Positions 22,881 through 51,200 of a stretch of DNA of 64,000 nucleotides are shown here, one piece after another. The notes under the pieces were generated by a model. It worked only from the letters and a program-made list of their open reading frames with translations, made no database searches and was not told where the DNA came from. Each line of letters begins with the position of its first letter. Position 1 is the stretch's first letter. Made by a program: the position numbers and the translations under genes. The stretch comes from Arenicola marina (Eukaryota > Annelida > Polychaeta > Arenicolidae): the NCBI GenBank assembly GCA_964019135.1, contig OZ025256.1, forward strand, positions 14,515,911 through 14,579,910. Direction: 5' to 3'.

Positions 22881-25800
22881 TACAATGCGGTCACAAGGCC
22901 GAGGCTCCCACAGCCAGTAACAAGTCACACGTTGTATATTGCAGGTACAATGCGGTCACAAGGCCGAGGCTCCCACAGCCAGTAACAAGTCACACGTTGT
23001 ATATTGCAGGTACAATGCGGTCACAAGGCCGAGGCTCCTACAGCCAGTAACAAGTCACACGTTGTATATTGCAGGTACAATGTGGTCACAAGGCCGAGGC
23101 TCCTACAGCCAGTAACAAGTCACACGTTGTATATTGTAGGTACAATGCGGTCACAAGGCCGAGGCTCCTACAGCCAGTAACAAGTCACACGTTGTATATT
23201 GCAGGTACAATGTGGTCACAAGGCCGAGGCTCCTACAGCCAGTAACAAGTCACACGTTGTATATTGCAGGTACAATGCGGTCACAAGGCCGAGGCTCCTA
23301 CAGCCAGTAACAAGTCACACGTTGTATATTGTAGGTACAATTCGGTCACAAGGCCGAGGCTCCTACAGCCAGTAACAAGTCACACGTTGTATATTGCAGG
23401 TACAATGTGGTCACAAGGCCGAGGCCCCTACAGCCAGTAACAAGTCACACGTTGTATATTGCAGGTACAATGTGGTCACAAGGCCGAGGCTCCTACAGCC
23501 AGTAACAAGTCACACGTTGTATATTGCAGGTACAATGCAGTCACAAGGCCGAGGCTCCTACAGCCAGTAACAAGTCACACGTTGTATATTGCAGGTACAA
23601 TGTGGTCACAAGGCCGAGGCTCCTACAGCCAGTAGCAAGTCACACGTTGTATATTGTAGGTACAATTCGGTCACAAGGCCGAGGCTCCTACAGCCAGTAA
23701 CAAGTCACACGTTGTATATTGCAGGTACAATGCGGTCACTAGGCCGAGGCTCCTACAGCCAGTAGCAAGTCACACGTTGTATATTGCAGGTACAATGCAG
23801 TCACAAGGCCGAGGCTCCTACAGCCAGTAACAAGTCACACGTTGTATATTGCAGGTACAATGCGGTCACTAGGCCGAGGCTCCTACAGCCAGTAGCAAGT
23901 CACACGTTGTATATTGCAGGTACAATGCAGTCACAAGGCCGAGGCTCCTACAGCCAGTAACAAGTCACACGTTGTATATTGCAGGTACAATGCGGTCACA
24001 AGGCCGAGGCTCCTACAGCCAGTAACAAGTCACACGTTGTATATTGCAGGTACAATGTGGTCACAAGGCCGAGGCTCCTACAGCCAGTAGCAAGTCACAC
24101 GTTGTATATTGCAGGTACAATGCAGTCACAAGGCCGAGGCTCCTACAGCCAGTAACAAGTCACACGTTGTATATTGCAGGTACAATGCGGTCACAAGGCC
24201 GAGGCTCCTACAGCCAGTAACAAGTCACACGTTGTATATTGCAGGTACAATGCAGTCACAAGGCCGAGGCTCCTACAGCCAGTAACAAGTCACACGTTGT
24301 ATATTGCAGGTACAATGCGGTCACAAGGCCGAGGCTCCTACAGCCAGTAACAAGTCACACGTTGTATATTGCAGGTACAATGTGGTCACAAGGCCGAGGC
24401 TCCTACAGCCAGTAGCAAGTCACACGTTGTATATTGCAGGTACAATGCAGTCACAAGGCCGAGGCTCCTACAGCCAGTAACAAGTCACACGTTGTATATT
24501 GCAGGTACAATGCGGTCACAAGGCCGAGGCTCCTACAGCCAGTAACAAGTCACACGTTGTATATTGCAGGTACAATGCGGTCACAAGGCCGAGGCTCCTA
24601 CAGCCAGTAACAAGTCACACGTTGTATATTGCAGGTACAATGCGGTCACAAGGCTGAGGCTCCTACAGCCAGTAACAAGTCACACGTTGTATATTGCAGG
24701 TACAATGCGGTCACAAGGCCGAGGCTCCTGCAGCCAGTAACAAGTCACACGTTGTATATTGCAGGTACAATGCGGTCACAAGGCCGAGGCTCCTACAGCC
24801 AGTAACAAGTCACACGTTGTATATTGCAGGTACAATGCGGTCACAAGGCTGAGGCTCCTACAGCCAGTAACAAGTCACACGTTGTATATTGCAGGTACAA
24901 TGCGGTCACAAGGCTGAGGCTCCTACAGCCAGTAACAAGTCACACGTTGTATATTGCAGGTACAATGCGGTCACAAGGCCGAGGCTCCTGCAGCCAGTAA
25001 CAAGTCACACGTTGTATATTGCAGGTACAATGCGGTCACAAGGCCGAGGCTCCTGCAGCCAGTAACAAGTCACACGTTGTATATTGCAGGTACAATGCGG
25101 TCACAAGGCCGAGGCTCCTACAGCCAGTAACAAGTCACACGTTGTATATTGCAGGTACAATGTGGTCACAAGGCCGAGGCTCCTACAGCCAGTAACAAGT
25201 CACACGTTGTATATTGCAGGTACAATGCGGTCACAAGGCCGAGACTCCTACAGCCAGTAACAAGTCACACGTTGTATATTGCAGGTACAATGTGGTCACA
25301 AGGCCGAGGCTCCTACAGCCAGTAACAAGTCACACGTTGTATATTGCAGGTACAATGCGGTCACAAGGCCGAGGCTCCTACAGCCAGTAGCAAGTCACAC
25401 GTTGTATATTGCAGGTACAATGTGGTCACAAGGCCGAGGCTCCTACAGCCAGTAGCAAGTCACACGTTGTATATTGCAGGTACAATGTGGTCACAAGGCC
25501 GAGGCTCCTACAGCCAGTAACAAGTCACACGTTGTATATTGCAGGTACAATGCGGTCACAAGGCCGAGGCTCCTACAGCCAGTAGCAAGTCACACGTTGT
25601 ATATTGCAGGTACAATGCGGTCTCAAGGCCGAGGCTCCTACAGCCAGTAACAAGTCACACGTTGTATATTGCAGGTACAATGCGGTCACAGGGCCGAGGC
25701 TCCTACAGCCAGTAACAAGTCACACGTTGTATATTGCAGGTACAATGCGGTCACAGGGCCGAGGCTCCTACAGCCAGTAACAAGTCACACGTTGTATATT

Positions 25801-26975
25801 GCAGGTACAATGTGGTTACAAGGCCGAGGCTCCTACAGCCAGTAACAAGTCACACGTTGTATATTGCAGGTACAATGCGGTCTCAAGGCCGAGGCTCCTA
25901 CAGCCAGTAACAAGTCACACGTTGTATATTGCAGGTACAATGTGGTCACAAGGCCGAGGCTCCTACAGCCAGTAACAAGTCACACGTTGTATATTGCAGG
26001 TACAATGCGGTCACAAGGCCGAGGCTCCTACAGCCAGTAGCAAGTCACACGTTGTATATTGCAGGTACAATGTGGTCACAAGGCCGAGGCTCCTACAGCC
26101 AGTAGCAAGTCACACGTTGTATATTGCAGGTACAATGCGGTCACAAGGCCGAGGCTCCTACAGCCAGTAGCAAGTCACACGTTGTATATTGCAGGTACAA
26201 TGCGGTCACAAGGCCGAGGCTCCTACAGCCAGTAACAAGTCACACGTTGTATATTGCAGGTACAATGCAGTCACAAGGCCGAGGCTCCTACAGCCAGTAA
26301 CAAGTCACACGTTGTATATTGCAGGTACAATGCGGTCACAAGGCCGAGGCTCCTACAGCCAGTAACAAGTCACACGTTGTATATTGCAGGTACAATGCGG
26401 TCACAAGGCCGAGGCTCCTACAGCCAGTAACAAGTCACACGTTGTATATTGCAGGTACAATGCGGTCACAAGGCCGAGGCTCCTACAGCCAGTAACAAGT
26501 CACACGTTGTATATTGCAGGTACAATGCGGTCACAAGGCCGAGGCTCCTACAGCCAGTAACAAGTCACACGTTGTATATTGCAGGTACAATGCAGTCACA
26601 AGGCCGAGGCTCCTACAGCCAGTAACAAGTCACACGTTGTATATTGCAGGTACAATGCGGTCACAAGGCCGAGGCTCCTACAGCCAGTAGCAAGTCACAC
26701 GTTGTATATTGCAGGTACAATGCGGTCACAAGGCCGAGGCTCCTACAGCCAGTAACAAGTCACACGTTGTATATTGCAGGTACAATGCGGTCACAAGGCC
26801 GAGGCTCCTACAGCCAGTAACAAGTCACACGTTGTATATTGCAGGTACAATGCGGTCACAAGGCCGAGGCTCCTACAGCCAGTAACAAGTCACACGTTGT
26901 ATATTGCAGGTACAATGCGGTCACAAGGCCGAGGCTCCTACAGCCAGTAACAAGTCACACGTTGTATATTGCAGG
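22881..26975. repeat. 65-bp satellite, 63 units, carrying the TAF5L stop codon
   Basis: 4095 bp is exactly 63 x 65; every unit appears to be 65 bp, differing only by substitutions (for example TGCGG/TGTGG/TGCAG and TAACAAG/TAGCAAG). In the gene's sense the unit starts CCTGCAATATACAACG and includes the codons for the last 17 residues of TAF5L plus TGA. Only the unit next to 26976 is joined to the real exon; the other 62 run downstream of the stop as 3' UTR or flank. Confidence 0.95.
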
Positions 26976-29900
26976 TGGTGTAGCGTGGTGCCTTTCGACC
27001 CCAAGGAACGCAGCAGCTCAGGCGAAGAGTGGCTCTCCCTAGCGGGGAAGACAATAAACATACGATATAGATTCGTTGCTATGGTAACGGATCAATGTTC
27101 CATGGAAGTAGAATATGACCAGCGAAGTCACGTGACTACAAATGTATAGTTACTGCACCAAATAGATTATTTTGGTAAATGCACCGCGTGAGTAGTAAGT
27201 GAGCGACACGGAAACAATGAAAAACAACCCTAATTACATATAAGGTATATCTTGCAACATCACAGAAACTATTTCAAGGCATAACGCACACAATCATCCA
27301 CATGTTTAATCATGTCGAACAGAATTATATATTAAGACGTTCCCCACACTGCAATATATTTCCGTAAAAGTAAAGGATCTGGTAAAGGCTATTTGGTAAA
27401 TTCCTTCTAATATAAGACCGAACCTGAGGGTCAGACTCACCCGGGGGTGGAGGGGTCACTGATCGTGCTGGGGGTGTGCACGTCCCATATCTTGACCGCT
27501 CCGTCAAGGCCACCTGAAGTTCAAGGTCAAGGGGCTTTGAACTCATATCTTAACTCATTCAACTCATTCAACTAGACTTATATTTTGACGTTTTGGGTAA
27601 TCTTACAAGCCCTTCATTGAGCGAGCCACAGATTTCCACACCACTTAAAGCTGCTCATACAGCAAACTCCGAAACCAACATTATGAGCTATGACCTTAGA
27701 CAAGAATGGCCGTATGCGCACGGACGTGGTAACAACATAGCCGCGCGAGAATTGAATTTAAATGGTCTAATTGCAAGATTACCCGGTGAAAACTTGACAG
27801 TGCGATGGCAAATCAAGCATGGATGTAGCTGATACTTGAAATTGCGGGCTTTAGAAGGCGATATTGCAGAAAATACGACACAAAATACCAACATTAGGTT
27901 GCTGCTGATAATATCGCCCAAAACCGTGTGGATTAGCGGTGTACAGTTGGCAGTGTGCAGCTGGAATCAGGGACTGTGTCAAAATTTTCCATGGGGAAAA
28001 ATAAGCGCCGTAGAAGCAGTAGCGGTGCAAAAAGCGACGCAGACATCGAAAAGAATCAACGCACGCTCGCTTCCTGGTTTGAGAAAGAAGACGTCTCCGA
28101 CGACACATTACTAGAAAGCAACAAGATGGCAGACACAGAAAAGCTGGATCACATCATAGGACTAGTGTCGTGTCTGCCTGAAATACGGGCCGCTGTAACT
28201 ACACTAAAGAAAGACGTGCAGGACCTGAAAGAAGCGGTTCAGTTTAACAGCGGGCGGACCGATGCACTCGAGAAAGAAAACACGACCCTCAAGGAAAAGG
28301 TAAAGGCTTTGGAGCAACGTAATGCCGGTGCTGAGCTTGAGGAGCTGAAACATCAACATGAGAAGCTGCAGAGTGAGGTGCAGGCCCTGGAGCAGTACAG
28401 CCGACGGGAAAATCTGGTGTTTTACGGTGTGAAGGAGGTAGCAGGTGACGTCCAAGAAGATTGTAGCCGCATCATACTGGATATCCTTAAGACGAAGTTA
28501 GGAATACAAGCTGCAGATGATATCAAGCTTCAACGCTGTCACCGACTTGGAAAAAGGCCGGCGACAGGAGCTACACAGGGACGCGGCAGGCCAATCATCG
28601 CGCGTTTCGCGTTCTTTAAAGATCGTGAGGAGGCTTGGAAAAACAAGAAGTCTCTTCGTGGGAGCAACGTGTTTGTGGAAGAGGATTTCCCAAGAGTGAT
28701 CCAGGAGGAACGACGGCGTCTGCTGCCAGCTCTGAAGGCAGCCAGGGCAGATGGGGCGCGCGCTACTCTGTCGGGGAATATTCTGGTGATAAACGGCAGC
28801 AGGTATTCCATACGGACGCTCCATTTAATGCCGGAAGGTTGGTCGAAGTGCGTTGTGGATCGAGTTGAAAGTGGAACTTCGAGACTGTGATTGAATTTTG
28901 TGCCCTAAAGAAATTAATTGTCAGAGGTGTGTTGACCGTGGAGACGGTCCCTCGCGGAGTATTTTTTGCTACCCAGTATTTGAGCTCACTGGAATGGGCG
29001 GGCATTCATGCATAACATCTGCTATGAGATATGAGTTTATTTTAGCCCAGCCGGGCGAGCGAAGCTGATTCTCGCGAGCTGTGCGTACTGTACTGCATTT
29101 TGAGTTAATCTGTATCCTGTCACTGGTACATTTAAGCCCCCCCATTTAACGATTATTTAGCGATTACGTCCTATTTTCTAATTTTCTTATAGTTAGATGC
29201 AGTACGGCCTGTATAACATCAACAATACGAAAGAACACTCCTTTCAAAAATTAAATGGTCCTTTTTTTCCTGCATATGTTTAAATCTGAATACCACTCTA
29301 ATTCATGGCAGCACTTATCAGATTATGGCAAAGCGGTTGCGTTATTGTGTTTTGAAACGTTTCTACTCTGGATGGTTGTATAGAAATCTGTAGTTTAAAT
29401 GCACGTGGGCTGGGTTCCCCTCTGAAACGTGCAGATGTTATGAGTTGGTTGCAAGAGAAAAAATTTTCAATTTGTTGTCTTCAGGATGTGCATTTTGATA
29501 AGGTAACGCAAACTAAATTAGAGGATGAGTATAATGCTACATTCTTCATAAACTCGCCATCGTCCCGTTCACGTGGAGTTGCCATAATATTAAAGAAACA
29601 ATTTGAGTATATTGTACATAATGTTTATAGAGATGAAGATGGCAACGTGTTGATATTGGATATAACTATGTGTAACAATAGATTAACTCTTGGTTGTATT
29701 TATGGACCGAACAAAGATAGGCCTGAGTTTTATGAGAACCTGAAATGTAGAATTAACTCGTTTGAAAATTCTAGTGCAATAATATGTGGTGACTGGAATT
29801 TGGTCTTATCACAAGAGAAGGATACAACCGGATATAAAAATGAGAACAATGTTAAAGCGCGAACGGTTTTACTAAATATGATGGAGGAGTTGGAGTTGTT

Positions 29901-33203: not shown

Positions 33204-33234
<31 letters not shown>

Positions 33235-36200
33235 ATTATGAGCTTTCATCACAACGTCCTGGACACATTGCCTCACTGTGAGAATTTTAACCATGTCCGT
33301 AGATATGCTATTATCTGTTAAACGGCAAAAAGGTGCAGCACAGTTTTGGTGACGTAGTACACAAGAACGCCACACTCTCGCACACGAGATGTACCAATCT
33401 GACCCAAAAAGACCCAGTATAACAAGATGTTATTTATTGCAAACAAGAGGTGCTCTTAGAGCCTACACAACCAGGTGGGTCTACAAGTCAAAGGGGGCTA
33501 CTTTTCTATTCCAAATGCCAATATGCCGACCCATAACATGATACGTGCCCCATAATTGACATGGTATGGCGGTATAGTGATGGTATAAAAATCTTTAACC
33601 AGGGCTTCATTGAAGCTCATATAAATCAAAGCATTGTTAGAGTTGCACATCGAGCTTTTTCCCGCCCAAAACTAAAGAATCAACACACAAATAAGAATCA
33701 GTTCTTGAATCATCCAAGATTTCTGTTGTCTATATTCCACGCAAACCAGGCTGCCAAATGGAGTCTCTGAGCCTTGCCCGTGATATCAATTTACCACAGG
33801 TTCTCAACTTAGTGGTAGACGTCATCAGTGTTTGTGTGCTTCACGACGCTCTGTTATAAGTAGCAGTGCCGCGACAGAGTTCCGCGGTGTCCCGGGATAG
33901 ACACGTTTGCCACACCACAGCCAAAACGGCGATGTTTATTAGGTTTCTAAATTTATGGAATGAAACAATTGAGTTTTCTGCAAATTGTGATATATATGTC
34001 GCCTGGGCTTAGTTTTGGCGGGACAGAGCTCGATATGCAACTCCAACTGATTGGGCGGATGGCGGATGTCACGTGACGTCTGATGGACTTACCGGAAGCC
34101 AACACTGTGCTCTCCCCGTTAAAGGTCAGAGAATGGATGACCTCTGTGTGACCTTTGAAGTCCCGCAACAATGACCCTGAACTGAGATCCCAGACCTTGA
34201 CCCTCTTATCTTCACCTGACGGAGGGAAGGATTAACATCAATAAGACCACAAAAATGTCACAAAATCAAAATGTCCAACATGTCCATCGCTAGATGGCGC
34301 CACTGTATGTCGACCAACAAGCCATTGCAGCCAATGACATGATACGAGACCGAGACGCCTCCTAACGACACCGCGGGGTCACCACGTGGCGTGGTAGTAG
34401 CGTGGTCGCCTATTGTCAAGCGAGCTCTGCTAAGCCATCCCAGGCGATCGGTGCGGGGTTCGAGCCTCACAGCCCAGGCGATCGGTGCGGGGTTCGAGCC
34501 TCACAGCCCAGGCGGTCGGTGCGGGGTTCGAGCCTCACAGCCCAGGCGATCGGTGCGGGGTTCGAACCTCCCAGCCCAGGCGACCGGTGCGGGGTTCGAG
34601 CCTCACAGCCCAAGCGACCGGTGCGGGGTTCGAGCCTCACATACCAGGCGACCGGTGCGGGGAGCGAGCCTCACAGCCCAAGCGGTCGGTGCGGGGTTCG
34701 AGCCTCACAGCCCAGGCGGTCGGTGCGGGGTTCGAGCCTCAAAGCCCAAGCGGCCGGTGCGGGGTTCGAGCCTCACAGCCCAGGCGGCCGGTGCGGGGAG
34801 CGAGCCTCACAGCCCAAGCGGTCGGTGCGGGGTTCGAGCCTCACAGCCCAGGCGGTCGGTGCGGGGTTCGAGCCTCACAGCCCAAGCGGTCGGTGCGGGG
34901 TTCGAGCCTCACAGCCCAAGCGACCGGTGCGGGGTTCGAGTCTCACAGCCCAGGCGGCCGGTGCGGGGTTCGAGCCTCACAGCCCAGGCGGCCGGTGCGG
35001 GGTTCGAGCCTCACAGCCCAAGCGGTCGGTGCGGGGTTCGAGCCTCACAGCCCAAGCGGTCGGTGCGGGGTTCGAGCCTCACAGCCCAGGCGGCCTCACA
35101 GCCCAAGCGACCGGTGCGGGGTTCGAGCCTCACAGCCCAGGCGGCCGGTGCGGGGTTCGAGCCTCACAGCCCAGGCGGTCGGTGCGGGGTTCGAGCCTCA
35201 CAGCCCAAGCGGTCGGTGCGGGGTTCGAGCATCACAGCCCAAGCGGTCGGTGCGGGGTTCGAGCCTCACAGCCCAGGCGGCCGGTGCGGGGTTCGAGCCT
35301 CACAGCCCAGGCGGTCGGTGCGGGGTTCGAGCCTCACAGCCCAGGCGACCGGTGCGGGGTTCGAGCCTCACAGCCCAGGCGGCCGGTGCGGGGTTCGAGC
35401 CTGACAGCCCAAGCGGTCGGTGCGGGGTTCGAGCCTCACAGCCCAAGCGACCGGTGCGGGGTTCGAGCCTCACAGCCCAGGCGGCCGGTGCGGGGAGCGA
35501 GCCTCACAGCCCCAGCGACCGGTGCGGGGTTCGAGCCTCACAGCCCAGGCGGTCGGTGCGGGGTTCGAGCCTCACAGCCCAAGCGGTCGGTGCGGGGTTC
35601 GAGCCTCACAGCCCAAGCGACCGGTGCGGGGTTCGAGCCTCACAGCCCAGGCGGCCGGTGCGGGGTTCGAGCCTCACAGCCCAGGCGACCGGTGCGGGGT
35701 TCGCGGCTCACAGCCCAGGCGGTCGGTGCGGGGTTCGAGCCTCACAGCCCAAGCGGTCGGTGCGGGGTTCGAGCCTCACAGCCCAGGCGGCCGGTGCGGG
35801 GTTCGAGCCTCACAGCCCAGGCGACCGGTGCGGGGTTCGCGGCTCACAGCCCAGGCGGTCGGTGCGGGGTTCGAGCCTCACAGCCCAGGCGGTCGGTGCG
35901 GGGTTCGAGCCTCACAGCCCAAGCGGTCGGTGCGGGGTTCGAGCCTCACAGCCCAAGCGGGCGGTGCGGGGTTCGAGCCTCACAGCCCAAGCGGTCGGTG
36001 CGGGGTTCGAGCCTCACAGCCCAGGCGGTCGGTGCGGGGTTCGAGCCTCACAGCCCAGGCGGCCGGTGCGGGGTTCGAGCCTCACAGCCCAGGCGACCGG
36101 TGCGGGGTTCGCGGCTCACAGCCCAGGCGGTCGGTGCGGGGTTCGAGCCTCACAGCCCAAGCGGTCGGTGCGGGGTTCGAGCCTCACAGCCCAGGCGGCC

Positions 36201-39200
36201 GGTGCGGGGTTCGAGCCTCACAGCCCAGGCGACCGTTGCGGGGTTCGCGGCTCACAGCCCAGGCGACCGGTGCGGGGTTCGAGCCTCACAGCCCAAGCGG
36301 TCGGTGCGGGGTTCGAGCCTCACAGCCCAGGCGGCCGGTGCGGGGTTCGAGCCTCATAGCCCAGGCGGCCGGTGCGGGGTTCGAGCCTCACAGCCCAAGC
36401 GGTCGGTGCGGGGTTCGAGCATCACAGCCCAGGCGGCCGGTGCGGGGTTCGAGCCTCACAGCCCAGGCGATCGGTGCGGGGTTCGAGCCTCACAGCCCAA
36501 GCGGTCGGTGCGGGGTTCGAGCCTCACAGCCCAAGCGGTCGGTGCGGGGTTCGAGCCTCACAGCCCAAGCGGTCGGTGCGGGGTTCGAGCCTCACAGCCC
36601 AAGCGGTCGGTGCGGGGTTCGAGCCTCACAGCCCAAGCGGTCGGTGCGGGGTTCGAGCCTCACAGCCCAAGCGGTCGGTGCGGGGTTCGAGCCTCACAGC
36701 CCAAGCGACCGGTGCGGGGTTCGAGCCTCACAGCCCCAGCGACCGGTGCGGGGTTCGAGCCTCACAGCCCAGGCGGTCGGTGCGGGGTTCGAGCCTCACA
36801 GCCCAAGCGGTCGGTGCGGGGTTCGAGCCTCACAGCCCAAGCGACCGGTGCGGGGTTCGAGCCTCACAGCCCAGGCGGCCGGTGCGGGGTTCGAGCCTCA
36901 CAGCCCAGGCGACCGGTGCGGGGTTCGAGGCTCACAGCCCAGGCGGTCGGTGCGGGGTTCAAGCCTCACAGCCCAAGCGGTCGGTGCGGGGTTCGAGCCT
37001 CACAGCCCAGGCGGCCGGTGCGGGGTTCGAGCCTCACAGCCCAGGCGGTCGGTGCGGGGTTCGAGCCTCACAGCCCAGGCGGTCGGTGCGGGGTTCGAGC
37101 CTCACAGCCCAGGCGGCCGGTGCGGGGTTCGAGCCTCACAGCCCAGGCGGTCGGTGCGGGGTTCGAGCCTCACAGCCCAGGCGGTCGGTGCGGGGTTCGA
37201 GCCTCACAGCCCAAGCGGCCGGTGCGGGGTTCGAGCCTCACAGCCCAGGCGGTCGGTGCGGGGTTCGAGCATCACAGCCCAGGCGGTCGGTGCGGGGTTC
37301 GAGCCTCACAGCCCAGGCGGTCGGTGCGGGGTTCGAGCCTCACAGCCCAAGCGGTCGGTACGGGGTTCGAGCCTCACAGCCCAAGCGGTCGGTGCGGGGT
37401 TCGAGCCTCACAGCCCAAGCGGTCGGTGCGGGGTTCGAGCATCACAGCCCAAGCGGTCGGTGCGGGGTTCGAGCCTCACAGCCCAGGCGGTCGGTGCGGG
37501 GTTCGAGCATCACAGCCCAGGCGGCCGGTGCGGGGTTCGAGCCTCACAGCCCAGGCGGTCGGTGCGGGGTTCGAGCATCACAGCCCAGGCGGTCGGTGCG
37601 GGGTTCGAGCCTCACAGCCCAAGCGGTCGGTGCGGGGTTCGAGCATCACAGCCCAAGCGGTCGGTGCGGGGTTCGAGCCTCACAGCCCAGGCGGTCGGTG
37701 CGGGGTTCGAGCATCACAGCCCAGGCGGCCGGTGCGGGGTTCGAGCCTCACAGCCCAGGCGGCCTCACAGCCCAGGCGGCCGGTGCGGGGTTCGAGCCTC
37801 ACAGCCCAGGCGGCCGGTGCGGGGTTCGAGCCTCACAGCCCAGGCGACCGGTGCGGGGTTCGAGCCTCACAGCCCAGGCGGCCTCACAGCCCAGGCGGCC
37901 GGTGCGGGGTTCGAGCCTCACAGCCCAGGCGGTCGGTGCGGGGTTCGAGCCTCACAGCCCAGGCGACCGGTGCGGGGTTCGAGCCTCACAGCCCAGGCGG
38001 TCGGTGCGGGGTTCGAGCATCACAGCCCAGGCGGCCGGTGCGGGGTTCGAGCCTCACAGCCCAGGCGGCCTCACAGCCCAGGCGGCCGGTGCGGGGTTCG
38101 AGCCTCACAGCCCAGGCGGTCGGTGCGGGGTTCGAGCCTCACAGCCCAGGCGACCGGTGCGGGGTTCGAGCCTCACAGCCCAGGCGGTCGGTGCGGGGTT
38201 CGAGCCTCACAGCCCAGGCGGTCGGTGCGGGGTTCGAGCCTCACAGCCCAAGCGGCCGGTGCGGGGTTCGAGCATCACAGCCCAGGCGGCCGGTGCGGGG
38301 TTCGAGCCTCACAGCCCAAGCGGTCGGTGCGGGGTTCGAGCCTCACAGCCCAGGCGGCCGGTGCGGGGTTCGAGCCTCACAGCCCAAGCGGTCGGTGCGG
38401 GGTTCGAGCCTCACAGCCCAGGCGGCCGGTGCGGGGTTCGAGCCTCACAGCCCAAGCGGTCGGTGCGGGGTTCGAGCATCACAGCCCAGGCGGCCGGTGC
38501 GGGGTTCGAGCCTCACAGCCCAGGCGGTCGGTGCGGGGTTCGAGCCTCCCAGCCCAGGCGGTCGGTGCGGGGTTCGAACCTCCCAGCCCAGGCGACCGGT
38601 GCGGGGTTCGAGCCTCACAGCCCAAGCGGTCGGTGCGGGGTTCGAGCATCACAGCCCAGGCGGCCGGTGCGGGGTTCGAGCCTCACAGCCCAGGCGGTCG
38701 GTGCGGGGTTCGAGCCTCACAGCCCAAGCGGCCGGTGCGGGGTTCGAGCCTCACAGCCCAGGCGGTCGGTGCGGGGTTCGAGCCTCACAGCCCAAGCGGT
38801 CGGTGCGGGGTTCGAGCCTCACAGCCCAGGCGGCCGGTGCGGGGTTCGAGCCTCACAGCCCAGGCGGTCGGTGCGGGGTTCGAGCCTCACAGCCCAAGCG
38901 GCCGGTGCGGGGTTCGAGCCTCACGGCCCAAGCGGTCGGTGCGGGGTTCGAGCCTCACAGCCCAAGCGACCGGTGCGGGGTTCGAGCATCACAGCCCAGG
39001 CGGCCGGTGCGGGGTTCGAGCCTCACAGCCCAAGCGGTCGGTGCGGGGTTCGAGCATCACAGCCCAGGCGGCCGGTGCGGGGTTCGAGCCTCACAGCCCA
39101 GGCGGTCGGTGCGGGGTTCGAGCCTCACAGCCCAAGCGGCCGGTGCGGGGTTCGAGCCTCACAGCCCAGGCGGTCGGTGCGGGGTTCGAGCCTCACAGCC

Positions 39201-42200
39201 CAAGCGGTCGGTGCGGGGTTCGAGCATCACAGCCCAGGCGGCCGGTGCGGGGTTCGAGCCTCACAGCCCAGGCGGTCGGTGCGGGGTTCGAGCCTCACAG
39301 CCCAAGCGGCCGGTGCGGGGTTCGAGCCTCACAGCCCAAGCGGTCGGTGCGGGGTTCGAGCCTCACAGCCCAAGCGACCGGTGCGGGGTTCGAGCCTCAC
39401 AGCCCAGGCGGCCGGTGCGGGGTTCGAGCCTCACAGCCCAGGCGACCGGTGCGGGGTTCGCGGCTCACAGCCCAGGCGGTCGGTGCGGGGTTCGAGCCTC
39501 ACAGCCCAAGCGGTCGGTGCGGGGTTCGAGCCTCACAGCCCAGGCGGCCGGTGCGGGGTTCGAGCCTCACAGCCCAGGCGGTCGGTGCGGGGTTCGAGCC
39601 TCACAGCCCAGGCGGTCGGTGCGGGGTTCGAGCCTCACAGCCCAAGCGGCCGGTGCGGGGTTCGAGCCTCACAGCCCAGGCGGTCGGTGCGGGGTTCGAG
39701 CCTCACAGCCCAGGCGACCGGTGCGGGGTTCGAGCCTCACAGCCCAAGCGGTCGGTGCGGGGTTTGAGCCTCACAGCCCAGGCGACCGGTGCGGGGTTCG
39801 AGCCTCACAGCCCAGGCGACCGGTGCGGGGTTCGAGCCTCACAGCCCAAGCGGTCGGTGCGGGGTTCGAGCCTCACAGCCCAAGCGACCGGTGCGGGGTT
39901 CGAGCATCACAGCCCAAGCGGTCGGTGCGGGGAGCGAGCCTCACAGCCCAGGCGACCGGTGCGGGGTTCGAGCCTCACAGCCCAAGCGGTCGGTGCGGGG
40001 TTCGAGCCTCACAGCCCAGGCGGTCGGTGCGGGGTTCGAGCCTCACAGCCCAGGCGACCGGTGCGGGGTTCGAGCCTCACAGCCCAAGCGGTCGGTGCGG
40101 GGTTCGAGCATCACAGCCCAGGCGGCCGGTGCGGGGTTCGAGCCTCACAGCCCAGGCGACCGGTGCGGGGTTCGAGCCTCACAGCCCAAGCGGTCGGTGC
40201 GGGGTTCGAGCCTCACAGCCCAGGCGGTCGGTGCGGGGAGCGAGCCTCACAGCCCAGGCGGTCGGTGCGGGGTTCGAGCCTCACAGCCCAGGCGGTCGGT
40301 GCGGGGTTCGAGCCTCACAGCCCAAGCGGTCGGTGCGGGGTTCGAGCCTCACAGCCCAAGCGGTCGGTGCGGGGTTCGAGCCTCACAGCCCAGGCGGCCG
40401 GTGCGGGGTTCGAGCCTCACAGCCCAAGCGGTCGGTGCGGGGTTCGAGCCTCACAGCCCAAGCGGCCGGTGCGGGGTTCGAGCCTCACAGCCCAGGCGGC
40501 CGGTGCGGGGTTCGAGCCTCACAGCCCAAGCGGTCGGTGCGGGGTTCGAGCCTCACAGCCCAAGCGACCGGTGCGGGGTTCGAGCCTCACAGCCCAGGCG
40601 GCCGGTGCGGGGTTCGAGCCTCACAGCCCAGGCGACCGGTGCGGGGTTCGCGGCTCACAGCCCAGGCGGTCGGTGCGGGGTTCGAGCCTCACAGCCCAAG
40701 CGGTCGGTGCGGGGTTCGAGCCTCACAGCCCAGGCGGCCGGTGCGGGGTTCGAGCCTCACAGCCCAGGCGGTCGGTGCGGGGTTCGAGCCTCACAGCCCA
40801 GGCGGCCGGTGCGGGGTTCGAGCCTCACAGCCCAAGCGACCGGTGCGGGGTTCGAGCCTCACAGCCCCAGCGACCGGTGCGGGGTTCGAGCATCACAGCC
40901 CAGGCGGCCGGTGCGGGGTTCGAGCCTCACAGCCCAGGCGGTCGGTGCGGGGTTCGAGCCTCACAGCCCAAGCGGCCGGTGCGGGGTTCGAGCCTCACAG
41001 CCCAGGCGGCCGGTGCGGGGTTCGAGCCTCACAGCCCAGGCGACCGGTGCGGGGTTCGAGCATCACAGCCCAAGCGACCGGTGCGGGGTTCGAGCCTCAC
41101 AGCCCCAGCGACCGGTGCGGGGTTCGAGCATCACAGCCCAGGCGGCCGGTGCGGGGTTCGAGCCTCACAGCCCAAGCGGTCGGTGCGGGGTTCGAGCCTC
41201 ACAGCCCAGGCGACCGGTGCGGGGTTCGAGCCTCACAGCCCAGGCGGCCGGTGCGGGGAGCGAGCCTCACAGCCCCAGCGACCGGTGCGGGGTTCGAGCC
41301 TCACAGCCCAGGCGGTCGGTGCGGGGTTCGAGCCTCACAGCCCAAGCGGTCGGTGCGGGGTTCGAGCCTCACAGCCCAGGCGGTCGGTGCAGGGTTCGAG
41401 CCTCACAGCCCAGGCGGTCGGTGCGGGGTTCGAGCCTCACAGCCCAAGCGGCCGGTGCGGGGTTCGAGCCTCACAGCCCAGGCGGTCGGTGCGGGGTTCG
41501 AGCCTCACAGCCCAGGCGACCGGTGCGGGGTTCGAGCCTCACAGCCCAAGCGGTCGGTGCGGGGTTTGAGCCTCACAGCCCAGGCGACCGGTGCGGGGTT
41601 CGAGCCTCACAGCCCAGGCGACCGGTGCGGGGTTCGAGCCTCACAGCCCAAGCGGTCGGTGCGGGGTTTGAGCCTCACAGCCCAGGCGGTCGGTGCGGGG
41701 TTCGAGCCTCACAGCCCAAGCGGTCGGTGCGGGGTTCGAGCCTCACAGCCCAGGCGGCCGGTGCGGGGTTCGAGCCTCACAGCCCAAGCGGTCGGTGCGG
41801 GGTTCGAGCCTCACAGCCCAAGCGGTCGGTGCGGGGTTCGAGCCTCACAGCCCAAGCGGTCGGTGCGGGGTTCGAGCCTCACAGCCCAGGCGGCCTCACA
41901 GCCCAAGCGACCGGTGCGGGGTTCGAGCCTCACAGCCCAGGCGGCCGGTGCGGGGTTCGAGCCTCACAGCCCAAGCGGTCGGTGCGGGGTTCGAGCCTCA
42001 CAGCCCAAGCGGTCGGTGCGGGGTTCGAGCCTCACAGCCCAAGCGGTCGGTGCGGGGTTCGAGCCTCACAGCCCAGGCGGCCTCACAGCCCAGGCGGCCG
42101 GTGCGGGGTTCGAGCCTCACAGCCCAAGCGGTCGGTGCGGGGTTCGAGCCTCACAGCCCAAGCGGTCGGTGCGGGGTTCGAGCCTCACAGCCCAAGCGGT

Positions 42201-45200
42201 CGGTGCGGGGAGCGAGCCTCACAGCCCAAGTGGTCGGTGCGGGGTTCGAGCCTCACAGCCCAAGCGGTCGGTGCGGCGTTCGAGCCTCACAGCCCAGGCG
42301 ACCGGTGCGGGGTACGAGCCTCCCAGCCCAAGCGGTCGGTGCGGGGTTCGAACCTCCCAGCCCAGGCGACCGGTGCGGGGTTCGAGCCTCCCAGCCCAAG
42401 CGGTCGGTGCGGGGTTCGAACCTCCCAGCCCAGGCGACCGGTGCGGGGTTCGAGCCTCACAGCCCAAGCGGTCGGTGCGGGGTTCGAGCCTCACAGCCCA
42501 GGCGACCGGTGCGGGGTTCGCGGCTCACAGCCCAAGCGGTCGGTGCGGGGTTCGAGCCTCACTTGTGCAACCAGGACAAATATAGTAGTGGGTGACTCCA
42601 GGAAACATGGCTCTTTTCTAGCATGACCCTTGCAGTGATATCATATACAGAAATTAAACGATGTTTGTCTTTAAGCCAGTTTTGCATACGAAAGGGTTAA
42701 ATTAGGTCAAGAAACCTCCGGGGACTCTAAGTGATTTAGGTGAAATATGCCGCAGATTCGATCGCTCGTAATTTTTACGAACAAATGTTACGATAGTGAA
42801 ATGACCCCCAGACTTGGCCAAGATGGCAGCCTTGTTGCCGTGGAAGAGGCGGACCCCCCTCCCCCGCCCACCCCCCCCCCCACCCCCTCTGGTGACCACA
42901 CCTACCTGCCGGGGCCAGCATGCGGCCGTCCGGGGAGAAGGCCAGAGCCAAGATGGCGGCCTTGTGGCCGTGGAAGAGGCGGACCCCCCCCCCCCACCCC
43001 CCCCAACCCCCTGGTGACCACACCTACCTGCCGGGGCCAGCATGCGGCCGTCCGGGGAGAAGGCCAGAGCCAAGATGGCGGCCTTGTGGCCGTGGAAGAG
43101 GCGGACCCCCCCCCCCACCCCCCCAACCCCCTGGTGACCACACCTACCTGCCGGGGCCAGCATGCGGCCGTCCGGGGAGAAGGCCAGAGCCAAGATGGCG
43201 GCCTTGTGGCCGTGGAAGAGGCGGACCCACCCCCCCAACCCCCTGGTGACCACACCTACTTGCCGAGGCCAGCATGCGGCCGTCCGGGGAGAAGGCCAGA
43301 GCCAAGATGGCGGCCTTGTGGCCGTGGAAGAGGCGGACCCCCCCCCCCCACCCCCCCAACCCCCTGGTGACCACACCTACCTGCCGGGGCCAGCATGCGG
43401 CCGTCCGGGGAGAAGGCCAGAGCCAAGATGGCGGCCTTGTGGCCGTGGAAGAGGCGGACCCCCCCCCCCACCCCCCCACCCCCTGGTGACCACACCTACC
43501 TGCCGAGGCCAGCATGCGGCCGTCCGGGGAGAAGGCCAGAGCCAAGATGGCGGCCTTGTGGCCGTGGAAGAGGCGGACGGACTTGCCCTCGTGGACGCTC
43601 CACAGACGCACGGAGCGGTCGCTGGACCCCGTTGCTAGGTAACTGCCGTTCGGGTGGAACTTGACACACTGTGCGAGAGGGATATGAGAAAAAAAGCAAG
43701 TCTACATTACTCCGTGGTCAATATCAGGCAAGCAATTTAATTTTGCTTATTTATTTTCACAAGGAAAGCAATGTAAATAATGTTAAAATATCACAAAGGA
43801 ATGAACACCAGAGGGGCGAAAATTAATCTTAATTAACGTCTACCATTTACTATAATAATCAAAGTCGTGGATTATACCATAGAAGATGGATCAGTTATTT
43901 TATCCTTGAGTTGGCGTCTTCACATTTCACCTAGTCAACGCATTGAACAATTAGCGAGAAGCAATTAACAAATTCACATAAAAAAGCAGCGGAGGAAGAA
44001 GAAGTGAGAATTTGAATAGTGACGTGAAATAGTCGGAAGGTCGGGATGCTGAAGGAGAGACCTGTTACTATAAGACATTTGAGAAAAACAATTCCCAAAT
44101 TTACATAAAAATTCAGGGGGGGGATGAAGAAGTGAGAACATGGAAAGTAACGTGAAGTAGTCGGAAGTTAGGGATGATGAAGGACAGACCTGTTACTAGG
44201 GGGGGGGGGTACCCCCTCTGAATCGCGAAACTCCAACAATTAGAGAGAGCGCTATTGAATCTCCAAAATTAGGACATTTTAAAGCTGGGCGCGAAAAACA
44301 CGCCTTAATAGTGATATCGCGAATATCGAAGAATTCGCAAACTGCTATAACGGATCGCGGTAAATAGGCAAAGGGTCTCCGCGTTGAACCAGGAATTGTA
44401 CGGATAACGATCCCCAAAAATTGCCAACAGCTAATCGCGAATCTCCAAGAATTCCTGGTTTATTATCGCGGAGATCAGAAAAGGTACCCCCCCGCCCCAC
44501 ACACACACACTTACTACAACACTTACGTCGACGTCTGCGGTGTGACCGAGGAAGGACCGCAGCGGGAAGGTGCGGTCTGTGGCCCACACCTTGGCCGTCC
44601 GGTCGTGCGAACACGTGGCGAAGTACCCGCCGACAGGACTACAGGGAAGCCGAGTATCACCAGCAATAATCAATAAAGGTCATTTATACCATCCATATAT
44701 CATATATAGCCCTACATTAAGGCCAGCGCTCTGACCGGACGGCGAGTTCAGGACGTTCCCAAGGAAATAGTCAATCCATCATGCAAATAACGATTAATAA
44801 CTACATGAATATTACACTGATTAGCGGTTGGCTGGTTGGTTTATTGTCGTATATAAGGCCGTCGGCCCATATTACAAAAAGACGTCATGTCTCATCTATT
44901 AGGAAGGAGATGGAGATGGAAAGAAACATGTGCAAAAATATATGTACAACAACAATATATGAAAAAACCGTTTTGTCCCCAAATAAAGTTTCATAAACCC
45001 TAAAATGATTTCCTTATATTATCGGCTTTGACTATATAACATGCAAGCTTCAGCGGGTCGCCCATATTAAGATTACTTCATTGTGACTACCATATTATCA
45101 CTTTACCTGGCCTCCACGCCCCAGATGGGATAGTTGTGCCCCTGATATACAGCACGGTGTGTGTTGGTTGTGCGCTCCCAGATCCGAACTGAAACAGTAA

Positions 45201-48200
45201 ACACCCCTTGATTTGATTTTTTAAAAGAGAACGCTGTAACCTCTGCAGATCATATAGCGACAAGGATGGTGTATATTCAGGACGCTTTAACCATTTTGGT
45301 CATATCGCGTCAATGGGAGAAGGAAGGGAGAGTGGAGCCATATCCCCGGGGGTAACCCCCTACTCTTTGCGAAGAAGGACATGGGATCTTTATCCTGCGA
45401 CCACACAGACATAGCCACAGCGGTGCTCGAACCACCGATCCACGTGCTGTTAGGCTCTCAGGAGGCCAGAGCACTGAAGGCGAGCGCTCTAGCCCACTGA
45501 GCTATCGCGCCGGCCCCTATATAGCGACAACGAGAAGGCAGGTACAGCATACAGGAACCATGTCCATGTACTGTCTGGGAGGACACACATGGGATCTTTA
45601 TACTGCACAAGCATACATTTGCACGTGTGGGATTCGAACCACGCACCGGCCGCTTAGGCTGGCCCGGCAGAGCACATTCGACAATGGCCGATAATTCCAG
45701 CCACTAGGCCACGGGGTGACCAAAAATGACCCCTTGAAAAACATTTTTGGGTTACAATGAAAAGCTTTGTCACAATTTTATTTCATTTTGAAAGACCTAT
45801 TTTTATCGTAGTCTATATGGATTTGTCGTATTTAAGAAAAATTGTATATACATATAACATATAAATAAACTGTAGCAATATAAAGGTGTTGCACCCACCC
45901 GTCGTGTCGGCCGAGGCTGACAGAATAAACTGTAGCAATATAAAGGTGTTGCACTTACCCGTCGTGTCGGCCGAGGCTGACAGAATAAACCGTAGCAATA
46001 TAAAGGTGTTGCACTTACCCGTCGTGTCGGCCGAGGCTGACAGAATAAACTGTAGCAATATAAAGGTGTTGCACCCACCCGTCGTGTCGGCCGAGGCTGA
46101 CAGAATAAACTGTAGCAATATAAAGGTGTTGCACTTACCCGTCGTGTCGGCCGAGGCTGACAGAATAAACTGTAGCAATATAAAGGTGTTGCACCCACCC
46201 GTCGTGTCGGCCGAGGCTGACAGAATAAACTGTAGCAATATAAAGGTGTTGCACTTACCCGTCGTGTCGGCCGAGGCTGACAGAATAAACTGTAGCAATA
46301 TAAAGGTGTTGCACCCACCCGTCGTGTCGGCCGAGGCTGACAGAATAAACTGTAGCAATATAAAGGTGTTGCACTTACCCGTCGTGTCGGCCGAGGCTGA
46401 CAGAATAAACCGTAGCAATATAAAGGTGTTGCACTTACCCGTCGTGTCGGCCGAGGCTGACAGAATAAACTGTAGCAATATAAAGGTGTTGCACCCACCC
46501 GTCGTGTCGGCCGAGGCTGACAGAATAAACTGTAGCAATATAAAGGTGTTGCACTTACCCGTCGTGTCGGCCGAGGCTGACAGAATAAACTGTAGCAATA
46601 TAAAGGTGTTGCACCCACCCGTCGTGTCGGCCGAGGCTGACAGAATAAACTGTAGCAATATAAAGGTGTTGCACTTACCCGTCGTGTCGGCCGAGGCTGA
46701 CAGAATAAACCGTAGCAAAAAAATATAAAGGTGTTGCACTTACCCGTCGTGTCGGCCGAGGCTGACAGAATAAACTGTAGCAATATAAAGGTGTTGCACC
46801 CACCCGTCGTGTCGGCCGAGGCTGACAGAATAAACTCTACCAATATAAAGGTGTTGCACTTACCCGTCGTGTCGGCCGAGGCTGACAGAATAAACTGTAG
46901 CAATATAAAGGTGTTGCACCCACCCGTCGTGTCGGCCGAGGCTGACAGAATAAACTGTAGCAATATAAAGGTGTTGCACTTACCCGTCGTGTCGGCCGAG
47001 GCTGACAGAATAAACTGTAGCAATATAAAGGTGTTGCACTTACCGTCGTGTCGGCCGAGGCTGACAGAATAAACTCTACCAATATAAAGGTGTTGCACTT
47101 ACCCGTTGTGTCGGCCGAGGCTGACAGAATAAACTCTAGCAATATAAAGGTGTTGCACTTACCCGTTGTGTCGGCCGAGGCTGACAGAATAAACTCTACC
47201 AATATAAAGGTGTTGCACTTACCCGTTGTGTCGGCCGAGGCTGACAGAATAAACTGTACCAATATAAAGGTGTTGCACTTACCCGTCGTGTCGGCCGAGG
47301 CTGACAGAATAAACTTGTCGTCGCACGTGAAGCTGACGTCATAGACGGACGCGCTGTGACCACGCAGACAGATCATCTCCTTATCAGACTTAAGCTCGAC
47401 CGACAACCTGCCGCGGGTGAAAACAGTGAAGCAATGTGTTATTTTACGGTTATACATTCTACTTTTTTACTATAAATGATCTTCATGCCATAATCTAACT
47501 TTAGGCCACACATATGCCACAATAGATCTTTATGGCAAAATCTGATTTAGGGCCTGAGTCTTTTTTGCTGCCATAATCTGATTTTTGCTGTCATTGTAAT
47601 TAGGTTGCTAAATCGAGTTTCAGTATATTCTGTGACGATATATAATGACATGACGCTCTGTAGTTTGATTCGGCCAGAATCCATGGGTTTACTAGCCTGG
47701 ACTGACCTAGAACAACAGCTTCCACATTGAAAAGTGGACCGGGCGACGGACGTGAAGAGGAACACGTGTGTTCATAAAAGACACACGACGCACGCAGACG
47801 CGGAGACGGATGCAGAAAAACGGACCGTGTGTTCGCTGCTTAAGACTCACCTCCTCTTCTCCGTGACGTCATCCTCGTAGTCCAGCGCCAGGTGGAGGTT
47901 GCTGACGCACACGGCGGGGACCTCGGACCGGATCCTCTCCGGAGTCAAACTCCACATCCGGATCACCGAGTCCTCGAACCCCCCACACAGCACGGAGCGA
48001 TCAGAGGCCACGGCCGCCCCGCACATCCTGCCAGGGGGAGAGAAAGTCATCTGGATTCTGTGTTTAATCCATCCATACATGTGACTTACACCTCAACCAG
48101 ATAAGGCCGCCCCGCACATCCTGCCCGGGGGAGAGAAAGTCCTCTGGATTCTGTGTTTAATCCATCCATACATGTAACTTACACCTCAACCAGATAAGGC

Positions 48201-51200
48201 CGCCCCGCACATCCTGCCCGGGGGAGAGAAAGTCATCTGGATTCTGTGTTTAATCAATCCATACATGTAACTTACACCTCAACCAGATAAGGCCGCCCCG
48301 CACATCCTGCCCGGGGGAGAGAAAGTCCTCTGGATTCTGTGTTTAAGCCATCCATACATGTAACTTACACCTCAACCAGATAAGGCCGCCCCCGGACATC
48401 CTGCCAGGGGGAGAGAAAGTCCTCTGGATTCTGTGTTTAATCCATCCATACATGTAACTTACACCTCAACCAGATAAGGCCGCCCCGCACATCAGGCCAG
48501 GGGGAGAGAAAGTCCTCTGGATTCTGTGTTTAATCCATCCATACATGTAACTTACACCTCAACCAGATAAGGCCGCCCCGCACATCAGGCCAGGGGGAGA
48601 GAAAGCCCTCTGGATTCTGTGTTTAATCCATCCATACATGTAACTTACACCTCAACCAGATAAGGCCGCCCCGCACATCAGGCCAGGGGGAGAGAAAGCC
48701 CTCTGGATTCTGTGTTTAATCCATCCATACATGTAACTTACACCTCAACCAGATAAGGCCGCCCCGCACATCAGGCCAGGGGGAGAGAAAGCCCTCTGGA
48801 TTCTGTGTTTAATCCATCCATACATGTAACTTACACCTCAACCAGATAAGGCCGCCCCGCACATCAGGCCAGGGGGAGAGAAAGCCCTCTGGATTCTGTG
48901 TTTAATCCATCCATACATGTAACTTACACCTCAACCAGATAAGGCCGCCCCGCACATCAGGCCAGGGGGAGAGAAAGCCCTCTGGATTCTGTGTTTAATC
49001 CATCCATACATGTAACTTACACCTCAACCAGATAAGGCCGCCCCGCACATCAGGCCAGGGGGAGAGAAAGCCCTCTGGATTCTGTGTTTAATCCATCCAT
49101 ACATGTAACTTACACCTCAACCAGATAAGGCCGCCCCGCACATCAGGCCAGGGGGAGAGAAAGCCCTCTGGATTCTGTGTTTAATCCATCCATACATGTA
49201 ACTTACACCTCAACCAGATAAGGCCGCCCCGCACATCAGGCCAGGGGGAGAGAAAGCCCTCTGGATTCTGTGTTTAATCCATCCATACATGTAACTTACA
49301 CCTCAACCAGATAAGGCCGCCCCGCACATCAGGCCAGGGGGAGAGAAAGCCCTCTGGATTCTGTGTTTAATCCATCCATACATGTAACTTACACCTCAAC
49401 CAGATAAGGCCGCCCCGCACATCAGGCCAGGGGGAGAGAAAGCCCTCTGGATTCTGTGTTTAATCCATCCATACATGTAACTTACACCTCAACCAGATAA
49501 GGCCGCCCCGCACATCAGGCCAGGGGGAGAGAAAGTCATCTGGATTCTGTGTTTAATCCATCCATACATGTAACTTACACCTCAACCAGATAAGGCCGCC
49601 CCGCACATCAGGCCAGGGGGAGAGAAAGCCCTCTGGATTCTGTGTTTAATCCATCCATACATGTAACTTACACCTCAACCAGATAAGGCCGCCCCGCACA
49701 TCAGGCCAGGGGGAGAGAAAGCCCTCTGGATTCTGTGTTTAATCCATCCATACATGTAACTTACACCTCAACCAGATAAGGCCGCCCCGCACATCAGGCC
49801 AGGGGGAGAGAAAGCCCTCTGGATTCTGTGTTTAATCCATCCATACATGTAACTTACACCTCAACCAGATAAGGCCGCCCCGCACATCAGGCCAGGGGGA
49901 GAGAAAGCCCTCTGGATTCTGTGTTTAATCCATCTATACATGTAACTTACACCTCAACCAGATAAGGCCGCCCCGCACATCAGGCCAGGGGGAGAGAAAG
50001 CCCTCTGGATTCTGTGTTTAATCCATCCATACATGTAACTTACACCTCAACCAGATAAGGCCGCCCCGCACATCAGGCCAGGGGGAGAGAAAGCCCTCTG
50101 GATTCTGTGTTTAATCCATCCATACATGTAACTTACACCTCAACCAGATAAGGCCGCCCCGCACATCAGGCCAGGGGGAGAGAAAGCCCTCTGGATTCTG
50201 TGTTTAATCCATCCATACATGTAACTTACACCTCAACCAGATAAGGCCGCCCCGCACATCAGGCCAGGGGGAGAGAAAGCCCTCTGGATTCTGTGTTTAA
50301 TCCATCCATACATGTAACTTACACCTCAACCAGATAAGGCCGCCCCGCACATCAGGCCAGGGGGAGAGAAAGCCCTCTGGATTCTGTGTTTAATCCATCC
50401 ATACATGTAACTTACACCTCAACCAGATAAGGCCGCCCCGCACATCAGGCCAGGGGGAGAGAAAGCCCTCTGGATTCTGTGTTTAATCCATCCATACATG
50501 TAACTTACACCTCAACCAGATAAGGCCGCCCCGCACATCAGGCCAGGGGGAGAGAAAGCCCTCTGGATTCTGTGTTTAATCCATCCATACACGTAACTTA
50601 CACCTTAAACAGGTACGCCGCCCCCGGACATCCTGCCATTTTAGGGTACGTGTGTACACATATACAGTAGGTCGAGAGAGAGGGTGAGGGGTAGAAAATG
50701 TTCCTCGACAGATTTTTTCTTTCAATTTTCTCTGAATAAACATTGTTTATAGACCTAGACTTATTAAAAATGTCATTAAAAAAATAGGTTACTTTACTAA
50801 TACTAAAAAAAATTCTGCCCATTTTTGTCAAATTGGCATGTCAAAATGCTATAAAATGACTTCCTTTTTTTAAACTTCCCTCGACCCCCACCCCCCCCCC
50901 TCAAAAAAAAAATAAACTGCTCGACAGACCCAGCAAAACAACTGCCGGCTGAAGCCAATTGTAATAAAGACATAAACAGCAGAAAGCAAAATAAAGATAT
51001 GTTACTTAAGTAAATTTTCCTCTGTAAGCTCGATTAATTGGCCAAAAATGCGTATTACATTCTTGTCTTTTGGCGCGTATATATGCAAATTTGGCAGAGG
51101 AAATAATATTTTATGTGACATGGTTCGATATTTGTTGTCATAAGAATCTGCCAAACAAAAATTCTGAATCTGTTTCTAGGAACATCCGCTAGGCGCGCCA

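What the first reader, a model, noticed from the sequence alone, without database searches (positions are those of the whole stretch)
22881..50640. Four satellites in one gene are each rooted in an exon boundary
In TAF5L the 65-, ~120-, 60- and 93-bp arrays begin inside coding exons 15, 12, 9 and 8 and extend away from the exon. Three of them carry the splice junction and one the stop codon. The periods and sequences are unrelated, so these are four independent events. Random intronic minisatellites would rarely all start within an exon. Either the boundary seeds replication or repair slippage, or selection removes all tandem growth except what leaves the outermost exon copy intact. Host exon junctions as seeds for satellites is a pattern I do not know as a described phenomenon.
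Basis: partly seen in the sequence, partly recalled or inferred. Interest (0 to 1): 0.9.

Follow-up and report, generated by a model that had tools for sequence, protein, structure and literature searches.

The report
Tandem repeats rooted at exon ends
Four unrelated short-repeat arrays in one gene each start inside the end of an exon and spread into non-coding DNA; this is a striking example of a kind of repeat already reported in lancelet genes, in which the exon-attached copy stays intact while the rest are free to expand.

Summary
On the minus strand a 15-exon TAF5L-like gene carries four arrays: 93 bp at the exon 8 acceptor, 60 bp at the exon 9 donor, about 120 bp at the exon 12 donor, 65 bp over the exon 15 stop codon. 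Each overlaps its exon by 16-79 nt and runs away from it. With the exon-attached copies, exons 7-15 form one open frame.

The claim of an undescribed phenomenon is wrong. Tandem repeats spanning exon-intron boundaries are published in amphioxus as "mirages" (Adh3, globins, PGBD5), and human CBS carries a comparable 31-bp VNTR.

Boundary seeding is not established. The junction sits anywhere in the unit (0.17-0.86). Four of eight in-gene arrays are exon-rooted against 0.9-1.3 expected by uniform placement (P 0.006-0.026) and 1.7-2.2 after GC matching (P 0.04-0.11), in a gene picked after the fact. One array spans no splice junction.

Best explanation: slippage or microhomology duplications straddling a coding edge, later expanded and homogenised, tolerated because the outermost copy keeps the exon. 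Beyond the published cases I read: four in one gene, a stop-codon case, up to 63 copies. Species identity and genome-wide enrichment could not be tested.

The parts
47851..48027 (-). TAF5L-like coding exon 8; its first 16 nt and acceptor are the outermost copy of the 93-bp array
   Evidence: splice signals CAG|G...|GTGAGT and open frame with E7 and E9
48012..50640 (-). 93-bp array, 28 units plus a distal partial copy, extending into intron 7; acceptor AG kept in the 5 units at the exon (attached copy included) and in the distal partial copy, replaced by CCT in 23 of 28 units
   Evidence: TRF 48012-50632; unit tables; partial copy
47283..47407 (-). TAF5L-like coding exon 9; its last 33 nt and donor are the outermost copy of the 60-bp array
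45864..47315 (-). 60-bp array, 24 units, extending into intron 9; 16 units with GTAAGT and 8 with GTGGGT donors; 8-nt direct repeat AGTTTATT at the two outer borders
   Evidence: TRF; units; microhomology
43500..43668 (-). TAF5L-like coding exon 12; its last 79 nt and donor are the outermost copy of the ~120-bp array
42817..43578 (-). ~120-bp array, 6 full units (112-130 bp) and a partial of about 37 nt, extending into intron 12; GT donor in 6 of 6
   Evidence: TRF; units
26921..27038 (-). TAF5L-like last coding exon 15 ending in TGA; its last 56 nt including the stop are the outermost copy of the 65-bp array
22879..26976 (-). 65-bp array, 63 units, extending 3' of the stop codon; no splice junction involved
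   Evidence: TRF; units
34439..42562 (.). 34-bp array, 240.9 copies, in intron 12; not exon-rooted (nearest exon edge E13 at 34215); unit resembles part of a tRNA-like repeat in intron 9
   Evidence: TRF; 29 of 36 aligned positions identical
43962..44198 (.). 128-bp tandem duplication, 1.9 copies, inside intron 11; not exon-rooted
   Evidence: TRF

Best explanation
These are four separate minisatellites, three of the 'mirage' type and one at the stop codon. Step 1 (inferred; the border repeat of the 60-bp array supports it): a short segment that happened to straddle a coding edge was tandemly duplicated by slippage or microhomology-mediated repair. Step 2 (shown as a pattern, mechanism inferred): the duplicate grew by unequal exchange or conversion into 6 to 63 similar units. 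Step 3 (inferred from the anatomy): because the unit contains the edge, the copy attached to the exon body still supplies an intact exon, splice site or stop, and all further copies fall into intron or 3' DNA, so the array is tolerated. Duplications wholly inside an exon would alter the protein and be removed. Exon ends, richer in GC than the introns of this gene (0.56 v 0.40), may be over-represented among the seeds, but no seeding by the junction itself is needed.
For: The attached copies give one open frame E7-E15. Inner copies evolve without visible coding constraint: variable sites 18 of 101 exon-derived v 20 of 117 other, pooled over the 60-, 65- and 93-bp arrays, attached copies left out, 120-bp array not counted. 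Inner copies lose features that the attached copy keeps: acceptor AG in 23 of 28 units of the 93-bp array; Ser codon changed to Pro in 4 of 5 inner 120-bp units. The junction position in the unit is spread (0.17, 0.55, 0.66, 0.86; KS against uniform p 0.77, n=4, low power), as for random straddling. An 8-nt direct repeat sits at the two outer borders of the 60-bp array (0.00045 of 20,000 random breakpoint pairs); the 65-bp array has 3 nt (0.065). The 65-bp array spans a stop codon and no splice junction, so splice signals are not required. GC: exon ends 0.56, introns without arrays 0.40. Similar structures with apparently normal splicing are published (PMC3087553, PMC3902484, passages).
Against: Uniform placement with exon-internal units forbidden, which is the selection-only model, still expects only 0.87 to 1.34 exon-edge arrays among 8, P 0.006 to 0.026 (units swallowing a whole exon counted as edge there). 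A residual excess at exon edges is therefore possible. It shrinks to P 0.037 to 0.11 only after GC matching, which is conservative because part of each unit is exon. The birth microhomology cannot be read for the 93- and 120-bp arrays, whose distal ends are partial copies, and the 3 nt of the 65-bp array are unremarkable. No transcript or second haplotype was available.
Confidence: 0.72

Rival explanations
1. Exon edges actively seed tandem duplication. In a genome with very divergent introns between haplotypes, repair by strand invasion works only where alleles match, in exons, and stalls or re-invades at the edge of homology, copying the exon end plus adjoining DNA again and again.
For: 4 of 8 in-gene arrays at edges, P 0.006-0.026 under uniform placement; recurrence in other amphioxus genes (passages); two donor types in the 60-bp array (16 GTAAGT, 8 GTGGGT) could be two parental alleles.
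Against: GC-matched P 0.037-0.11; junction position in the unit not fixed; high heterozygosity of lancelet genomes is recalled, not measured here; allele mixing untestable without a second haplotype.
Confidence: 0.15
2. A splice-linked process (splice-site motif, transcription or R-loop at the junction) causes the duplication.
For: Three of four arrays carry a splice site.
Against: The 65-bp array spans a stop codon and no splice junction; donors and an acceptor are both involved; junction offset in the unit varies 0.17-0.86.
Confidence: 0.04
3. Chance clustering of ordinary minisatellites in a repeat-rich gene, noticed after the fact, with no biological preference at all.
For: P 0.037-0.11 with GC-matched placement; 4 of the 8 in-gene arrays are not exon-rooted.
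Against: Independent reports of the same structure in several amphioxus genes (passages); uniform-placement P 0.006-0.026.
Confidence: 0.07
4. Assembly artefact: the arrays are mis-assembled or over-expanded.
For: Copy number cannot be checked without reads; a published amphioxus mirage was aberrantly assembled in a genome draft (PMC3087553, supplementary legend seen).
Against: No N in the window; the 60-, 93- and 65-bp arrays hold 8, 10 and 18 distinct units; the exon-rooted position does not depend on copy number.
Confidence: 0.02

Closest known systems
Amphioxus 'mirages' (Adh3, Canestro et al. 2002 as cited in PMC3087553; globins BflGb6 and BflGb9; PGBD5, and troponin C as cited in PMC3902484)
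   Same: Minisatellite-like tandem duplication that includes an exon-intron boundary, at either side of an exon; splice signals in many but not all units; end copies excluded from homogenisation in BflGb6 (passages)
   Different: Here four in one gene, 6 to 63 units (6 and 3 repeat units in the two BflGb6 haplotypes), and one array at the stop codon rather than at a splice junction
Human CBS: 31-bp VNTR c.1444_1467+7(16_21) and c.844_845ins68
   Same: The published name puts the VNTR unit across 24 exonic and 7 intronic nt, 16-21 copies; [quoted passage not shown]
   Different: Shorter unit, one VNTR and one simple duplication, human gene; population data exist there and not here
Intron gain by tandem duplication across an exon-intron boundary (potato RdRp, PMC4974935, abstract; human segmental duplications, PMC2812944, passages)
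   Same: Tandem duplication at the exon-intron boundary that carries splice signals
   Different: There new introns arose or are proposed; here no new intron is needed for the frame

Membership tests
amphioxus mirage | Tandem repeat unit contains an exon-intron boundary | tested here: met
   3 of 4 arrays (E8 acceptor, E9 and E12 donors); the fourth (E15) spans CDS end and 3' DNA and does not meet it, so it is not filed as a mirage in the strict sense
amphioxus mirage | Unit length in the published range (10-72 bp Adh3, 150-160 bp globins, 60 and 108 bp PGBD5) | tested here: met
   60, 65, 93, ~120 bp lie within or between the published values
amphioxus mirage | Many but not all units keep AG/GT splice signals | tested here: met
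   93 bp: 5 of 28 keep the acceptor AG; 60 bp: 16 of 24 GTAAGT and 8 GTGGGT; 120 bp: 6 of 6 GT
amphioxus mirage | Cluster ends escape homogenisation | tested here: inconclusive
   Differences from the consensus: 93 bp, five exon-side units 4-8 and the distal unit 4, the 22 between 0-2; 65 bp, the attached unit equals the consensus; 60 bp, 0-3 throughout
amphioxus mirage | Does not disturb mRNA splicing | not testable with these tools
   No transcripts; only the open frame E7-E15 with attached copies is shown
amphioxus mirage | Copy number varies between haplotypes or somatically | not testable with these tools
   One haplotype only; no genome held
amphioxus mirage | Host is a cephalochordate | not testable with these tools
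TAF5L (host gene) | Best match to TAF5L rather than TAF5 | tested here: inconclusive
   C-terminal half: TAF5L 1.2e-85, TAF5 2.6e-78; N-terminal half: TAF5 1.9e-29, TAF5L 7e-28

The most novel reading that the evidence does not exclude
Coding edges, not splice sites as such, are hot spots for the birth of minisatellites, because recombination or repair in a genome with highly divergent non-coding haplotypes is confined to conserved exons and breaks down at their edges. The stop-codon array would then be the same process as the splice-junction arrays.
Probability: 0.15. Interest if true: 0.75.

Novelty: new member of a known kind. Interest (0 to 1): 0.38.

Why it matters
It is a rich natural case, with four separate arrays covering acceptor, donor and stop codon in one gene, for asking how genes tolerate rows of decoy splice sites and whether exon ends are preferred birthplaces of minisatellites. 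Published work (PMC3087553) proposes such arrays as a route to new introns. The stop-codon array would widen the definition from splice junction to coding edge.

Tried and rejected
Rfam (gathering thresholds) and ARAGORN gave 0 matches, so the tRNA-like repeat is not called as a tRNA. Reading-frame preservation of the periods (60, 93, 120 divisible by 3) was looked at and dropped: 65 is not, the 120-bp units vary in length, and only 3 of 23 decoy donors at E9 and 1 of 5 at E12 (+240 nt) give a longer full-length reading. The 93- and 120-bp arrays end in partial copies (about 22 and 37 nt, by eye), so their birth microhomology could not be read. A first null with 6 in-gene arrays gave P 1.0e-3 to 6.2e-3 and 0.025 to 0.064 with GC matching; it left out the 128-bp and 19-bp arrays, so the 8-array version is the one relied on. 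The whole-window null (13 arrays, P 6.3e-4 and 6.9e-4) counted exons of this gene only and is too favourable; for it, short TRF rows and overlapping rows of one array were dropped. ORF 60354-60575 gave 0 Pfam matches; its reading as a squalene synthase exon is by eye.

Papers: passages seen of PMC3087553, PMC2812944, PMC3902484, PMC2630376; abstract and outline of PMC4974935. The 2002 Adh paper was not held and is known here only through papers that cite it. Searches for prior work; apart from the passages named, only listings were seen.
Full report
The observation. The host gene lies on the minus strand. Its exon translations match human TAF5L and its paralogue TAF5 (C-terminal half: TAF5L 1.2e-85, TAF5 2.6e-78; N-terminal half: TAF5 1.9e-29, TAF5L 7e-28). 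In one search two other WD40 proteins, 2ymu and 7big, rank above TAF5L by E-value; both match in six stretches. I placed 15 coding exons by splice signals and frame. E7 to E15 read as one open frame to the stop; E1 to E6 are provisional, because E3 as drawn breaks the frame.

Where the arrays sit. The 93-bp array overlaps the first 16 nt of E8 with its acceptor and extends upstream into intron 7. The 60-bp array overlaps the last 33 nt of E9 with its donor and extends into intron 9. The ~120-bp array overlaps the last 79 nt of E12 with its donor and extends into intron 12. The 65-bp array overlaps the last 56 nt of E15 including TGA and extends 3' of the stop. In 4 of 4 the exon-attached copy completes the open frame. 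The units are unrelated: of 10 pairs among five units (the 34-bp one included) 9 score within the range of 100 shuffles, and 65 v 120 bp scores 23 against a maximum of 21, the two sharing a 10-nt word. Separate origins are likely.

Is it more than chance? Eight TRF arrays with score >=100 and period >=10 lie in the gene (the 65-bp one at its end); four are exon-rooted. I collapsed each array to one unit, placed units at random in the gene and left out exon-internal placements. Expected exon-edge arrays are 0.87 (inserted LINE kept) to 1.34 (LINE removed), P(>=4 of 8) 0.0057 to 0.026. With placements matched for GC within 0.06 the expectation is 1.80 to 2.19 and P 0.043 to 0.109; within 0.10 it is 1.70 to 2.08 and P 0.037 to 0.093. 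Earlier versions with six arrays gave smaller P (1.0e-3 to 6.2e-3 unmatched; 0.025 to 0.064 matched). The reason that GC matters: exon ends have GC 0.56, introns outside arrays 0.40. The gene was picked after it was seen, so these values overstate the case; GC matching errs the other way, since part of each unit is exon. The window alone cannot settle enrichment.

Does the junction seed the array? If it did, the junction might be expected to have a preferred place in the unit. The overlaps are 0.17, 0.55, 0.66 and 0.86 of the unit, not distinguishable from uniform (KS p 0.77, n=4, low power). The E15 array spans no splice junction. Both donor and acceptor sides occur. These points favour random straddling over a splice-linked trigger.

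How the arrays evolve. Inner copies show no visible coding constraint: variable sites are 2 of 31 exon-derived v 5 of 29 other (60 bp), 11 of 53 v 3 of 12 (65 bp), 5 of 17 v 12 of 76 (93 bp), pooled 18 of 101 v 20 of 117 (attached copies left out, 120-bp array not counted). Mean pairwise identity is 0.976, 0.974 and 0.966 for the 65-, 93- and 60-bp arrays, so expansion or homogenisation is recent or ongoing. In the 93-bp array the five units at the exon, attached one included, and the distal partial copy keep the acceptor AG; the other 23 units have CCT instead. Use of any of the five live decoy acceptors would bring an early stop (residue 76 or 86 against 393 of the E7-E15 reading). The disarmed block may reflect selection, but it looks like one change spread by homogenisation and cannot be tested as such. 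At E9 three of 23 decoy donors and at E12 one of five (+240 nt) would keep a full-length reading. In the 120-bp array four of five inner units change a Ser codon to Pro that the attached copy keeps.

Birth. The two outer borders of the 60-bp array share the 8-nt direct repeat AGTTTATT, one in the exon and one in the intron (as much or more in 0.00045 of 20,000 random breakpoint pairs); the 65-bp array shares 3 nt (0.065). That fits slippage or microhomology-mediated duplication for the first and says little for the second. The other two end in partial copies and cannot be read.

Known or new. It is. [quoted passage not shown] It takes the name mirages from an earlier Adh3 report, shows both exon sides affected, and notes that many but not all units keep splice signals, that regular splicing seems undisturbed, and that cluster ends escape homogenisation (passages). 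PMC3902484 reports 60- and 108-bp cases in lancelet PGBD5 and cites Adh and troponin C (passages). Outside lancelets, human CBS has a 31-bp VNTR named c.1444_1467+7(16_21) and a 68-bp duplication of an intron-exon junction (passages), and potato RdRp has a duplication across an intron-exon boundary that made a new intron (abstract). Compared with these, this locus has four arrays in one gene, up to 63 copies, and a stop-codon member that spans no splice junction. I have seen only passages of these papers and the 2002 paper was not held, so I do not claim that such a stop-codon case is absent from print.

Mechanism. I commit to random tandem duplication across a coding edge, helped by short direct repeats and perhaps by the higher GC of exon ends, followed by ordinary minisatellite growth, and tolerated because the outermost copy keeps the exon whole. 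The attached-copy logic is shown by the sequence; birth and growth are inferred; normal splicing is assumed from the published cases. A boundary-specific seeding process remains possible and is the most interesting reading left: in a genome whose introns differ strongly between haplotypes (recalled for lancelets, not measured here), repair confined to matching exons could fail at their edges and copy them repeatedly.

Limits.

Noticed in passing
34439-42562: An 8.1-kb array of about 241 copies of a 34-bp unit in intron 12; the unit matches 29 of 36 positions of a tRNA-like repeat in intron 9 near 45.6 kb, so it seems to be grown from part of a SINE-like element (SINE and B-box reading by eye).
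   Followed up: partly
27937-32967: A LINE with a 1203-codon open ORF (endonuclease, reverse transcriptase, zinc-binding domain) and an upstream 317-codon ORF lies in intron 13 in the opposite orientation to the gene.
   Followed up: partly
12366-17887: A Ty3-type element on the minus strand; its gag-like ORF (16616-17887) carries an N-terminal RNA recognition motif (RRM_1, 1.7e-10) before a PNMA-like and zinc-finger part, a combination that strikes me as unusual.
   Followed up: no
4512-6507: A flavin amine oxidase gene in at least two pieces on the minus strand (Amino_oxidase 3.8e-43 and 4.5e-15).
   Followed up: no
62246-62464: A squalene synthase exon on the plus strand (SQS_PSY 4.9e-07), with a likely upstream exon near 60.4 kb by eye; a 180-bp x 4 array (61289-62007) lies between them and overlaps neither.
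   Followed up: partly
9143-10840: A 13/20-bp array (to 10611) next to a 28/36-bp array of different sequence (from 10635).
   Followed up: no
48012-50640: The distal partial copy of the 93-bp array and one unit near the exon (about 48.4 kb) share the same changes (ATGTCCGGGGG) although about 2.2 kb apart, as if the uniform inner block had expanded between two once adjacent units.
   Followed up: partly
52565-53675: The 26-bp array in intron 4 lies at the centre of a nested inverted repeat (arms of 83 nt at 90%, 37 nt at 92% and 160 nt at 99% complementarity), which looks like a non-autonomous DNA transposon.
   Followed up: partly
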